DNA of 64,000 bases from Pyramidobacter sp. YE332 (GTDB lineage Bacteria; Synergistota; Synergistia; Synergistales; Dethiosulfovibrionaceae), in the NCBI RefSeq assembly GCF_033060595.1, contig NZ_CP133038.1, positions 2,046,001 to 2,110,000 of the forward strand, given 5' to 3'. Of this stretch, positions 31,027 through 34,574 are shown piece by piece (the stretch's first letter is position 1; each line of letters opens with the position of its first letter). The position numbers and the translations under genes were made by a program. Below the pieces are notes generated by a model. The model was not told the origin of the DNA. It saw only the letters and a list, made by a program, of their open reading frames with translations, and did no database searches.

Positions 31027-31836
31027 TCAGCCCTCGGAATATTTTGCTCCTCCCATGAATTGAGCTTCATCGAGGCTGAAAAGAGTGTCGACGAACAGGT
31101 CGCGGAAATACGCAGGGCCGCGCCGCGCCGCGCACGTTCCGGCGGCAGCCTGCTCGCCGCTCAGCCCCACGACGGCGCAGACGGCGGCCGCCGCGCGCAG
31201 GGAATTTTCGACGGCGAACGCGGCGCCGAGCAGCGACGACAGCATGCAGCCCATACCCGTGACGCGGGCCATCATCGCATCGCCGTTGCCAACGCTGAAC
31301 GTTCGGCGTCCGTCGGTGACCGCATCGACGGCGCCGGAAGCAACCGCTACGCAGCCGTACCGCCGCGCCAGCTGCACCGCAGTTTCGTGCGCAGACGCCG
31401 CGTCTTCCGAAGATGCGTCGACGCCCCTCGCCGTTCCCGTGTCGCCAAGCAGGGCTCGGATCTCCGCGCCGTTGCCCCGTACGCAGGCCACGGGAAATTC
31501 TTTCAGCAGCGCGATGCAGCTGCGGCGGCGGAGCGAAGAAGCGGCAACGCCGACCGGATCGACAATGATCGGATGCCCGCGCTCGGCGGCCTGCCGCGCC
31601 GCTTTTCCGATGGAATCCAGCTGCGCGATGGCCCCCATATTGACCACCAGCGCGTCGGCATGGCGCTGCACCTCTTCCACCTCATCGGGATGAGCGGCCA
31701 TAAAGGGACGCGCGCCGGCGGCCAGCAGGACGTTGGCGCAGTCGTTCACGGTCACCGGGTTGGTGATGCAGTGGACGAGCGGACGGCGGCGGGAAATTCT
31801 CTCCCACACCGCCCACAGTTCAGCGGGAACCGCCAT
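31027..31836 (-). CDS. thiM: Hydroxyethylthiazole kinase
   Basis: A 269-residue ribokinase-like enzyme that phosphorylates 4-methyl-5-(2-hydroxyethyl)thiazole for thiamine salvage. The substrate region PLVHCITNPVTVNDCANVLLA (part, residues 19-39) and the GTGC-like phosphate loop VTGMGCMLSSLLGA near 194 are characteristic; the usual ATP-site GNG is in VRGNGAEI. It overlaps the thiW gene by 17 bases, so the two are translated together. Confidence 0.95.
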   Translation of the reverse strand: MAVPAELWAVWERISRRRPLVHCITNPVTVNDCANVLLAAGARPFMAAHPDEVEEVQRHADALVVNMGAIAQLDSIGKAARQAAERGHPIIVDPVGVAASSLRRRSCIALLKEFPVACVRGNGAEIRALLGDTGTARGVDASSEDAASAHETAVQLARRYGCVAVASGAVDAVTDGRRTFSVGNGDAMMARVTGMGCMLSSLLGAAFAVENSLRAAAAVCAVVGLSGEQAAAGTCAARRGPAYFRDLFVDTLFSLDEAQFMGGAKYSEG

Positions 31837-32350
31837 GCCGTTCTCCCGAAATATTCCGCTCAGCTTCGAGCAGCCCCAGCCTTTTCATGGCGACGGTGAT
31901 CACGGCGCCGATCGCCGTGCCGCCGGCGGAACTGATCAGAAACGGCACGACGAAAGTCAGCAGCGCGGCTTTGTCGTTGCCCAACACAAAACGCGCCACG
32001 GGATAGGACAGCATCCCGCCGATCAGCCCCGTGCCGGCGATCTCCCCCAGCCAGGCGGCAGGAAGCCGCCGAACCAGCCGGTACAGAACGCCGGCCAGCA
32101 GCGCGCCGCACATGCTCCCGGGGAACGCGAGCGGCGTGCCGGCGCCGATGAGGTTGCGGATCAGACTGGCGATGAACGCCGCCGCCACATTCCACGCCGG
32201 CCCGAGAAAAACGGCGCCGAGAATGTTGGCGAGATGCTGCGCCGGCGCGCACTTGGCCCCGAAAACGGGAAAGGAAAAAAACGACCCCACCACGGCAAAC
32301 GCGGCCAGAACGGCCGTAAACGCGATCTTTCTGACTCGTAAATTGTTCAT
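31820..32350 (-). CDS. thiW: Thiazole uptake protein ThiW (ECF transporter S component)
   Basis: A 176-residue membrane protein with about five or six hydrophobic segments (for example IAFTAVLAAFAVVGSFFSF near residue 8) and the conserved QHLANILGAVFLGPAWN near 38. ThiW is the substrate-binding subunit of an energy-coupling-factor transporter for thiazole; shared ATPases would be encoded elsewhere. TAGGAGG lies just before the ATG. The family is usually controlled by a TPP riboswitch, and one exists 1.8 kb upstream on the same strand beyond an IS110 insertion. Confidence 0.93.
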   Translation of the reverse strand: MNNLRVRKIAFTAVLAAFAVVGSFFSFPVFGAKCAPAQHLANILGAVFLGPAWNVAAAFIASLIRNLIGAGTPLAFPGSMCGALLAGVLYRLVRRLPAAWLGEIAGTGLIGGMLSYPVARFVLGNDKAALLTFVVPFLISSAGGTAIGAVITVAMKRLGLLEAERNISGERHGGSR

Positions 32351-32454
32351 GGATTCCTCCTAGAATAATGTAGTCGCACTTGTTGACAGATTATTGAACG
32401 GGACAATCTGCGATAATGTCAGCATGCAGTGTGAGCGTCGCCGTTTGTTTCCTT

Positions 32455-32600
32455 GGGGACATTTCCTCGTAAAGGAGAGTGGCGCCTCACCTCTTGCGGC
32501 AGTTCACGAATGAGCTGGATGTTGAGACCGAAGGTCTTCTCCGTCTGTCCAAGGAGGTTGTGAGCCGCAGGAAGCGTGAGAATTCACCTGCAAATACGTT
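32455..32600 (+). ncRNA. Candidate bridge (seek) RNA of the IS110 element
   Basis: The 5' non-coding end of IS110 elements encodes a structured RNA that guides recombination. Here an outer stem TGCGGC-TCAC (32495-32507, three-base bulge) pairs with GTGA-GCCGCA (32560-32569). Two inner hairpins follow: AGACC/GGTCT (32525-32529, 32533-32537) and CTCC/GGAG (32539-32542, 32553-32556) with a ten-base loop. A further stem GGGGA/TCCTC lies at 32455-32468. The fold is by eye; the targeting loops were not assigned. Confidence 0.5.
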
Positions 32601-32615
32601 GTGGTGAGGTGACTC

Positions 32616-33803
32616 ATGTACTATCTTGGTATTGACATCGGGAAGAACAATCACGAAGCAGGGCTTATCAGGGAGGACGGCAGCCACGTCGGCAAGTCGC
32701 TGCGTTTCGCCAATGCTCGGGAGGGCTTTCAGCAGCTTCTGCTCTTTCTCGAACAGAGTCTTCCCGAGCGGGAGGCTTTCTGTATCGGCATGGAGGCGAC
32801 CGGTCATTACTGGCTCGCGCTCTACTCCTTTCTGCGGGAGCAGGGTTTTGCTCTGCATGTGATCAACCCGATCCAATCCGACAGTCTGAGGAACTTCCAC
32901 ATCCGGAAGCAGAAAACGGATGCGGTCGACTGCTTTCTGGTGGCTGAGGTGATCCGTTTCGGCTCGTTCAGCGAAACTCATCTGGCTGATGAAGATATCA
33001 TGGCGCTGCGCAATCTGGCCCGTTTCAGAGAGTCGCTCAAGGACTCCTGCGCCGACTACAAGCGACAGGTCGTCACCGTTCTGGATCAGGTGTTTCCGGA
33101 GTATGCTGCCTTGTTCTCCAACGTCTTTGGCGAGAGTTCAAAGGCATTTCTCAAGACGTACGGCACTCCGGAACAGGTGGTCGACGTGAACACGAAATCG
33201 CTGGCCGCTTTGCTCAGAAAAACCAGCCGGGGCCGGCACGGTACTGACAAAGCCCGTGAGCTCAAGTCTCTGGCGGCGCGTTCGGTCGGCCTGACTCTGT
33301 GTTCGGATGCCTTTGCCTTTCAAATCAGGATTCTCATCGAACAGATCGAATTCACGGAGAAGCAGATCGATGAGATCGACAAGAAGATCGCCCGGCAGCT
33401 GAGGAAGTTTAGCTCTGTCATCCTCACTGTCCCCGGCGTGGGGCCGGCGACGGGCGCCGTGATCCTCGGTGAGATCGGCGATATCAGTCGTTTCTCCAAT
33501 CCCAAGAAACTCGTCGCCTTTGCCGGGATCGATCCGACTTCGTTTCAATCGGGGAACTATGTCGGCCAGCACAACCGCTTGTCCAAGAAAGGATCCCCCT
33601 ACCTGAGACGAGCTGTCTGGATGTCGGCGCTGATAGCAGTCAGATGCGATCCTGTCTTCAAAGCGTTCTACGAAAAGAAGCGCGGTGAGGGGAAAGCGCA
33701 TGGGACTGCATTGGGGGCTGTGTCGAGAAAACTGCTTTATACGATTTACGCTGTTCTGAAAGCCAACAAACCTTACGAGGTACGCCGCCAGGGCATAGAA
33801 TGA
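32616..33803 (+). CDS. IS110-family transposase
   Basis: A 395-residue recombinase. The N-terminal RuvC-like DEDD domain starts YYLGIDIGKNNHEAGLI (first Asp at residue 6), with GMEATGHY near 68 and KTDAVDCFLVAE near 103 giving the other acidic residues. The C-terminal Transposase_20 domain has VPGVGPATGAVILGEIGDI near 275 and the conserved serine region AGIDPTSFQSGNY near 305. It is intact and reads opposite to the thiW-thiM genes. Confidence 0.93.
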   Translation: MYYLGIDIGKNNHEAGLIREDGSHVGKSLRFANAREGFQQLLLFLEQSLPEREAFCIGMEATGHYWLALYSFLREQGFALHVINPIQSDSLRNFHIRKQKTDAVDCFLVAEVIRFGSFSETHLADEDIMALRNLARFRESLKDSCADYKRQVVTVLDQVFPEYAALFSNVFGESSKAFLKTYGTPEQVVDVNTKSLAALLRKTSRGRHGTDKARELKSLAARSVGLTLCSDAFAFQIRILIEQIEFTEKQIDEIDKKIARQLRKFSSVILTVPGVGPATGAVILGEIGDISRFSNPKKLVAFAGIDPTSFQSGNYVGQHNRLSKKGSPYLRRAVWMSALIAVRCDPVFKAFYEKKRGEGKAHGTALGAVSRKLLYTIYAVLKANKPYEVRRQGIE

Positions 33804-34094
33804 TCCTGTTCCCGCGGGGTTCCCTGCTCGTGTCGCTTCCGTGTGAGCTCGTTCGCGTGCTTGTTTTGTCTGAGTTCTGTCCAATATGCCGTTTTCAGGG
33901 GCGCTTTGGCTTTTTCACGCGGGCAACCGGCTAGAAATACTTCGGGCATGAGCTCGAATTTCCTACTTGACTTTTAATAGCTGGTCTCCTTGAAAACGTG
34001 CTCCCGAAAAAAACTTCCGCTCTCTTTCCTGTCCATCTGTCTGTACAGAGCCGACGCCGGCTCCGCTGCCGGTCCAGACGGTTTTCCGGCAAAC

Positions 34095-34123
34095 AAAAAA
34101 GCGGCACCCTGTCGGACACCGCC
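34095..34123 (-). terminator. Terminator of the TPP riboswitch expression platform
   Basis: On the minus strand GCGGTGTCC pairs with GGGTGCCGC (three wobbles) around GACA, followed by T6. It lies just downstream of the aptamer at the distance expected for a terminator-type riboswitch. Confidence 0.75.
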
Positions 34124-34144
34124 ATTACGTTCGTTCACGCATCT

Positions 34145-34228
34145 TACATCCCTCCGTTGGCATTATCCAATTCAGGTTCCGGGTCGAAGCTCAGCGCTTC
34201 CTCTCAGCCGTTTCCAGCTCCCCGCGTC
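34145..34228 (-). promoter_or_regulatory. TPP riboswitch (THI box) aptamer
   Basis: On the minus strand the conserved blocks appear in order: GCGGGGAGC, GGCTGAGAGG, ACCCGGAACCTGA, TTGGATAATGCCAACG and GAGGGATG. These are the thiamine-pyrophosphate binding core. A terminator follows. The first thiamine genes downstream on this strand are thiW and thiM, beyond the IS110 element. Confidence 0.93.
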
Positions 34229-34302
34229 AGATTATTCAATTGTGAAAACAGACGGCCGTTTCCGTCGGCTGCCGCAAAACTCCCCATCGCCCGCGAACGA
34301 TA

Positions 34303-34330
34303 CAAAATAACCCGGCTTGAAAGGCCGGGA
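34303..34330 (-). terminator. Terminator of the tRNA Leu-Lys unit
   Basis: CCCGGC/GCCGGG stem (34311-34316, 34324-34329) followed on the minus strand by TTATTTT, 10 bases after the tRNA-Lys end. Confidence 0.75.
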
Positions 34331-34339
34331 GAAATACTC

Positions 34340-34415
34340 TGGTGGATCGTACAGGACTTGAACCTGTAACCCTCTGATTAAGAGTCAGATGCTCTGCCAG
34401 TTGAGCTAACGATCC
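34340..34415 (-). tRNA. tRNA-Lys (anticodon CTT), copy 1
   Basis: 76 bases: acceptor GGATCGT/ACGATCC, anticodon stem CTGA/TCAG with loop CTCTTAA, T-arm with GTTCAAG, discriminator A and encoded CCA. Same sequence as the copy at 34991-35066. Confidence 0.97.
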
Positions 34416-34435
34416 ATATTTAAAACTTATGAACT

Positions 34436-34520
34436 TGGTGCGAAGGAGGGGACTTGAACCCCTACGCCCGAAGGCACCAGATCCTAAGTCTGGCGCGTCT
34501 GCCAATTCCGCCACCCTCGC
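34436..34520 (-). tRNA. tRNA-Leu (anticodon TAG)
   Basis: 85 bases, class II: acceptor GCGAGGG/CCTTCGC, anticodon stem CCAGA/TCTGG with loop CTTAGGA, long variable arm, encoded CCA. Forms a unit with tRNA-Lys copy 1. Confidence 0.97.
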
Positions 34521-34544
34521 AACGCGCCTCGCACGACACGGGGA

Positions 34545-34574
34545 ATTATAGCATCCCCGCGCCGGACGTGACAA
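34545..34574 (-). promoter_or_regulatory. Promoter of the tRNA Leu-Lys unit
   Basis: Minus strand TTGTCA, 18 bases, TATAAT; the -10 lies 25 bases before tRNA-Leu(TAG). Confidence 0.75.

What the first reader, a model, noticed from the sequence alone, without database searches (positions are those of the whole stretch)
31820..34228. TPP riboswitch cut off from thiW-thiM by an IS110 insertion
Seen: a full THI-box aptamer and terminator on the minus strand at 34095-34228, then an IS110 element read in the opposite direction, then thiW and thiM on the minus strand. Known: thiW and thiM are classic TPP riboswitch targets. Inference: the leader once joined thiW directly; now about 1.6 kb of foreign DNA lies between, so salvage genes may be silent, uncontrolled, or driven from the IS.
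Basis: partly seen in the sequence, partly recalled or inferred. Interest (0 to 1): 0.75.

Follow-up and report, generated by a model that had tools for sequence, protein, structure and literature searches.

The report
RNA-guided transposon cuts off thiamine riboswitch
A jumping gene of the RNA-guided IS110 kind has landed exactly on the ribosome-binding site of a thiamine-salvage gene, parting it from its thiamine-sensing RNA switch; all ten copies of the element in this genome sit on such sites, so it looks addressed to the starts of genes.

Summary
A TPP riboswitch (34132-34234, minus) with its terminator is separated from thiW-thiM (minus) by a 1,629-bp IS110 element (32362-33990; tnpA on plus). 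A genome of the same species and two of the same genus lack the element; there the riboswitch and terminator run straight into the thiW ribosome-binding site. So the leader did belong to thiW, and the insertion is recent (aptamer 103/103 identical within the species).

The genome holds ten 99-100% identical copies, and all ten left ends abut CCTCCT, a Shine-Dalgarno (SD) AGGAGG, 5-11 nt before a start codon, always in one orientation. Four homologues (70-88% identical) from other taxa have the same junction. The predicted bridge-RNA target loop spells TTTC-CT-CCTTTAC; the observed core is TTC-CT-CCTT. The SD is rebuilt, so translation signals survive while promoter and riboswitch are cut away.

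SD targeting has a precedent in IS900 (IS110 family), so this is a new variant of a known kind. No ThiG or full-length Thi4 was found, so ThiW-ThiM is probably the only thiazole source besides thiamine uptake. Expression of thiW was not testable here.

The parts
34545..34574 (-). Promoter-like site TTGTCA-18-TATAAT ahead of two tRNA genes; nearest consensus promoter upstream of the riboswitch
   Evidence: 11 of 12 matches, extended -10; sequence conserved in L016 and L017
34343..34520 (-). Two tRNA genes (34439-34520 and 34343-34415), followed by a terminator-like hairpin at 34329-34311
34132..34234 (-). TPP riboswitch aptamer (THI element), complete
   Evidence: 59.5 bits, cut-off 54.3; 103/103 identical to same-species G129
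34100..34123 (-). Intrinsic terminator of the riboswitch leader
   Evidence: 36-nt terminator region 35/36 identical to G129
33991..34095 (-). Remnant of the native thiW leader, now stranded upstream of the element
   Evidence: 102/103 identical to the uninterrupted leader in G129
32362..33990 (+). IS110 element, 1,629 bp (IS621-like register: element 32359-33985 with CT cores at 32357-32358 and 33986-33987)
   Evidence: ten-copy comparison; empty sites
32616..33803 (+). tnpA, DEDD IS110 recombinase, 395 aa
32421..32585 (+). Predicted bridge RNA region in the left non-coding end: two stem-loops (target-binding loop about 32439-32484, donor-binding loop about 32504-32563); ends approximate
   Evidence: fold z = -2.85 for the whole left end; consensus fold of 5 homologues, 60 pairs, 7 with two-sided changes
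32443..32451 (+). Predicted left target guide GUUUGUUUC (core CU follows)
   Evidence: position by homology with IS621; last bases match the target TTC-CT; inference
32469..32477 (+). Predicted right target guide GUAAAGGAG, reverse complement CTCCTTTAC
   Evidence: 3-6 of 7 non-core bases match at the ten sites; inference
33967..33972 (+). -35-like TTGACT near the right end; with TAGAAT at 32361-32366 it would form a 17-nt-spaced promoter in the circular form
   Evidence: read from the sequence; inference by analogy with known IS110 circles
32356..32361 (-). Shine-Dalgarno AGGAGG of thiW, rebuilt across the left junction, 5 nt before the ATG
   Evidence: empty sites in L016, L017, L100
31820..32350 (-). 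thiW, thiazole ECF transporter S component; reading frame intact
   Evidence: 526/531 nt identical to G129
31027..31836 (-). thiM, hydroxyethylthiazole kinase, overlapping the end of thiW

Best explanation
An IS110-family, probably bridge-RNA-guided element whose target address is the Shine-Dalgarno sequence recently inserted into the SD of thiW. Shown: the ancestral order is riboswitch-terminator-leader-SD-thiW-thiM; the element sits precisely in the AAGGAGG; all ten genomic copies do the same in one orientation; the SD is rebuilt on the gene side. Inferred: the target loop of the element's RNA pairs with TTTC-CT-CCTTTAC, the complement of an extended SD; the inserted copy leaves thiW-thiM translatable but cuts off their promoter and TPP riboswitch by 1.6 kb of divergently read DNA, so expression falls and direct thiamine control is lost unless transcripts cross the element.
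For: Uninterrupted leader-thiW in the same species (L100) and two congeners (L016, L017). Ten of ten copies abut CCTCCT with a start codon 5-11 nt away and an open frame; eight of the ten captured genes match known families. Two further sites (kor and Fe2+-transport genes) are empty in congeners at the same SD. Homologues at 70-88% identity in Clostridiaceae, Eubacteriaceae, Kiritimatiellae and Bacillota MAGs carry the same left junction at the SD motif; the start codon is visible in three of the four. AAGGAGG is strongly tied to starts in this genome: 271 of 506 have ATG 4-11 nt downstream, against 22 of 598 for the reversed pattern. Predicted target loop TTTC-CT-CCTTTAC against observed TTC-CT-CCTT. 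IS621 uses the same CT core and guide layout (PMC11208160). No outward promoter at the thiW-facing end.
Against: No expression data. The guide match is short: outside TTC-CT-CCTT the left guide barely matches, and the ten sites score only slightly above other SD sites in the window (mean 10.8 against 9.6 of 18). No strong terminator was found on the minus strand inside the element, so read-through from the native promoter is not excluded. The bridge RNA is predicted, not observed.
Confidence: 0.78

Rival explanations
1. Read-through: transcripts from the native promoter pass the riboswitch and cross the element antisense to tnpA, so thiW-thiM stay under weakened TPP control.
For: No strong minus-strand terminator inside the element (best a 6-pair hairpin at 33237-33222). 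Aptamer and terminator are intact. The SD is rebuilt, so a long transcript would be translated.
Against: 1.6 kb of untranslated antisense RNA is a usual substrate for Rho, and a predicted plus-strand bridge RNA/tnpA transcript would run head-on into it (inference). An intact aptamer is equally expected if the insertion is recent.
Confidence: 0.3
2. The element supplies an outward promoter at its left end that drives thiW-thiM constitutively.
For: IS elements often do this (general knowledge); the junction is only 11 nt from the thiW ATG.
Against: No sigma-70-like site on the minus strand near the left end; the only internal one (33585-33556) is 9/12 and at chance level. The consensus -35 and -10 halves point the other way and join only in the circle.
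Confidence: 0.1
3. The element targets the 7-8 bp word AAGGAGG as such, and selection removes insertions inside coding sequence, so the SD pattern is partly survivorship rather than an address evolved for gene starts.
For: About half of AAGGAGG words lie before an ATG (271/506); insertions in coding frames would be purged.
Against: Ten of ten at starts has probability about 0.002 at 54% per site if AAGGAGG alone decided (arithmetic), so something beyond the word (extended target or selection) acts. This rival changes the reason, not the outcome at thiW.
Confidence: 0.4
4. Assembly artefact: the element was misplaced between riboswitch and thiW.
For: Ten near-identical copies can confuse assembly.
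Against: Each copy has its own flanks, and at the three sites tested (thiW, kor, Fe2+-transport) the flanks of the two sides join in relatives. The genome is in 2 contigs.
Confidence: 0.03

Closest known systems
IS900 (IS110 family, Mycobacterium avium subsp. paratuberculosis)
   Same: Target motif CATGNNNNNNTCTCCTT, i.e. start codon plus SD complement in the same order as here (PMC8141618); Doran et al. 1997 titled it as targeting translation initiation signals.
   Different: Different host phylum. IS900 carries the antisense hed ORF said to use the host start signals; here no start codon follows the right-end AAGGAG at SD distance. IS900's sequence was not compared here.
IS621 and other bridge-RNA IS110 elements (PMC11208160)
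   Same: DEDD/Transposase_20 recombinase, long left non-coding end with two stem-loops, CT core, circle-junction promoter halves.
   Different: IS621 targets REP elements; here the target is the SD. RNA and recombination not tested here.
Enterococcal IS110 elements about 50% identical (e.g. on NZ_CP046125, NZ_CP016165)
   Same: Two enterococcal plasmid copies abut the annotated start codon of the divergent gene through CTCC.
   Different: Other ends (TTGTATATTA). The Salimicrobium and Alicyclobacillus copies do not show the SD pattern.
TPP-riboswitch-controlled thiW-thiM operons
   Same: Aptamer, terminator, thiW and thiM all present; ancestral order seen in relatives.
   Different: The cis link is broken by the insertion in this strain.

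Membership tests
IS110 family insertion sequence | DEDD N-terminal domain plus Transposase_20 C-terminal domain | tested here: met
IS110 family insertion sequence | Site- and orientation-specific insertion without a clear target duplication beyond a short shared core | tested here: met
   ten copies and the empty sites; only CTCCT is shared by both ends
IS110 family insertion sequence | Non-coding end with a two-loop bridge RNA | tested here: inconclusive
   predicted fold and 7 two-sided pair changes in 5 homologues; no RNA data
IS110 family insertion sequence | Promoter rebuilt at the circle junction | tested here: inconclusive
   TTGACT-17-TAGAAT across the joined ends by inspection; circles not observed
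IS900-like SD-targeting IS110 elements | Insertion at SD plus start codon in fixed polarity | tested here: met
   10/10 copies; motif of IS900 from PMC8141618
IS900-like SD-targeting IS110 elements | Antisense hed-type ORF that borrows the host start signals | tested here: not met
   no ATG/GTG/TTG at SD distance after the right-end AAGGAG; antisense frames of 248 and 164 aa exist but start elsewhere
TPP riboswitch (RF00059) | Covariance-model score above the gathering threshold with complete aptamer | tested here: met
TPP riboswitch (RF00059) | Thiamine-dependent control of the downstream gene | not testable with these tools
   needs RNA data

The most novel reading that the evidence does not exclude
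Addressing the ribosome-binding site is a recurrent, independently evolved strategy of RNA-guided IS110 elements: the guide RNA carries an SD-like word, so any SD-using genome offers hundreds of landing sites just outside genes, and each insertion keeps the start signal while stripping off leader regulation such as riboswitches. A second, only 34% identical IS110 element in the same order sits at SDs in the opposite polarity, and IS900 is a third case. At thiW the orphan riboswitch may now gate antisense RNA across tnpA and the bridge RNA.
Probability: 0.4. Interest if true: 0.68.

Novelty: new variant of a known kind. Interest (0 to 1): 0.52.

Why it matters
Bridge-RNA recombinases are being developed for genome engineering, and their natural addresses show what they are selected for. 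An address equal to the SD sequence explains how an element can spread (ten copies here) without breaking reading frames, and predicts a specific kind of damage: genes keep their start signals but lose promoters, riboswitches and operon partners. The thiW case is a clean natural experiment, with empty sites in the same species and no ThiG or full-length Thi4 found, so loss of ThiW-ThiM should show as a need for thiamine instead of thiazole.

Tried and rejected
A first reading of the left guide as the ACAUUUCCUC segment was dropped: comparison with IS621's guide layout (published layout, sequence detail from memory) and with enterococcal elements places it one segment upstream (GUUUGUUUC-CU). 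A hed-like captured ORF (as in IS900) was looked for and not found. An outward promoter at the thiW end was looked for and not found. PF05690 (ThiG) gave only a partial sub-cut-off hit, and PF01946 (Thi4) only short fragments of 35-64 of 235 positions in larger frames; both were read as absence. Literature searches for IS110 with Shine-Dalgarno, riboswitch or ribosome binding site found no report of SD addressing by a bridge RNA, but only open-licence papers are held.

Full report
What is there. The minus strand carries, in order of transcription, two tRNA genes with a promoter-like site and a terminator-like hairpin, a complete TPP riboswitch aptamer (34234-34132, 59.5 bits against a gathering score of 54.3), a terminator hairpin (34123-34100), about 105 nt of leader, then an IS110 element, then thiW and thiM. 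tnpA is on the plus strand.

The element's ends. A DNA search of the genome (2.8 Mb, 2 contigs) with this stretch gave ten copies at 99-100% identity. Aligning them fixes the shared part at 1,629 bp (eight copies; 1,645 and 1,651 in two copies with short duplications at the left end), in the window 32362-33990. The unit CTCCT occurs at both ends, so the cut can slide by up to 5 bp.

The empty site. Relatives were searched with the ThiW protein and with the element. Two congeners with ThiW at 91% identity (L016, L017) have no copy of the element, and in them the riboswitch, terminator and leader run directly into TTTTCAAGGAGG and the thiW ATG. A same-species genome (G129) matched a 500-nt query made of the two joined flanks over its full length at 99% identity and reads CATGGACTCCTCCTTGAAAA at the site, with the riboswitch terminator adjacent. 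The aptamer is 103/103 identical between the strains. The leader therefore belonged to thiW, and the insertion happened within the species.

The address. In every copy the left end follows CCTCCT, which on the other strand is AGGAGG, 5-11 nt before a start codon of an open frame. The captured frames are thiW, a Fe2+-transport protein, an unassigned protein, a 2-oxoacid:ferredoxin oxidoreductase gamma subunit inside its operon, a DctP solute-binding protein, a small secreted protein, a DUF4405 membrane protein, a gamma-glutamyltranspeptidase, panB behind a panE-like frame, and an amidohydrolase. The orientation is always the same: left end toward the gene, tnpA reading away from it. The kor and Fe2+-transport sites are empty in congeners at the same SD. 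In this genome AAGGAGG occurs 506 times and 271 of these have ATG 4-11 nt downstream, against 22 of 598 for the reversed word, so this word is largely an SD word; ten of ten would still have a chance of about 0.002 if the word alone decided.

Relatives of the element. The named-genome scan found copies 70-88% identical in MAGs labelled Clostridiaceae, Eubacteriaceae, Kiritimatiellae and Bacillota. All four have the same CCTCCT left junction; in three the start codon is visible 4-6 nt beyond it and in one the contig ends there. Enterococcal plasmid elements about 50% identical end at CTCC next to the annotated start codon of the divergent gene in two of two annotated cases; the Salimicrobium and Alicyclobacillus copies do not.

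The guide. The left non-coding end folds better than shuffles (z = -2.85). Five homologues share a two-hairpin consensus with 7 pairs changed on both sides. Placing the guides as in IS621 (CT core, left guide before the hairpin, right guide after it; PMC11208160; the detailed IS621 sequence is from memory) gives left GUUUGUUUC-CU and right GUAAAGG-AG, hence target GTTTGTTTC-CT-CCTTTAC. The ten sites agree on TTC-CT-CCTT. Two enterococcal elements match their own left flanks over 7 of 7 bases at this position (TTTTCTC in L107, TTGCCTC in L111; read), which supports the placement. The match in the window's element is short, and its score is only a little above other SD sites, so the guide assignment is an inference.

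How it works, most likely. Excision joins the ends; the junction would carry TTGACT-17-TAGAAT, as described for other IS110 circles (PMC11208160). The RNA directs the recombinase to an SD complement. After insertion the gene side reads ATTCT-AGG-AG-G, so AGGAGG is rebuilt and translation signals survive; promoter and leader remain 1.6 kb upstream. No outward promoter is visible at the left end and no strong terminator on the minus strand inside the element. Reduced, unregulated expression of thiW-thiM is therefore most likely, with read-through the main rival. Neither was testable here.

Why thiW matters to this cell. Three other TPP riboswitches precede thiT, thiE and thiC. No ThiG above cut-off and no full-length Thi4 was found. 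Thiazole should then come only through ThiW-ThiM, or thiamine through ThiT. If thiW-thiM is silent, the strain should need thiamine.

What is known. IS900, of the same family, has the target motif CATGNNNNNNTCTCCTT (PMC8141618), and Doran et al. 1997 (cited there) described it as targeting translation initiation signals. SD targeting is thus known in principle. Not found in the literature searched: a bridge-RNA reading of that address, the rebuilt SD, or riboswitch severing by such an element. A second IS110 element in the same order (G142; 34% identical transposase, 1,581 bp, four copies) has its right end at AGGAGG, 7-8 nt before the ATG of an open frame in three of four copies, in the opposite polarity, which suggests the address has arisen more than once.

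Noticed in passing
L101-L104 (G142:C1, four copies): A different IS110 element (34% identical transposase, 1,581 bp) ends at its right side in AGGAGG 7-8 nt before the ATG of an open frame in 3 of 4 copies, i.e. SD-associated in the opposite polarity.
   Followed up: partly
L012 and L014 (left end of two copies): Copies L012 and L014 carry 16-bp and 22-bp direct duplications at the left end, next to or including the terminal sequence.
   Followed up: no
L008 versus L061-L064 (kor operon): The joined flanks at the kor insertion have three CCT units where congeners have two; either strain variation in a CCT repeat or a small change made on insertion.
   Followed up: partly
G000:C1, whole genome: Thiamine genes thiC, thiE and thiT each follow their own TPP riboswitch and thiN lies beside thiE, but ThiG is not found above cut-off and Thi4 only as short fragments: thiazole synthesis appears missing.
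   Followed up: partly
window 34234-34545: In the window and two congeners the riboswitch leader lies about 80 nt behind the terminator of a two-tRNA unit, with no clear promoter of its own; it may be transcribed by read-through from the tRNA promoter.
   Followed up: no
window 33138-33884 and 32487-32981, minus strand: Antisense open frames of 248 and 164 aa lie opposite tnpA, resembling the situation of hed in IS900 but without start signals at the right end.
   Followed up: partly
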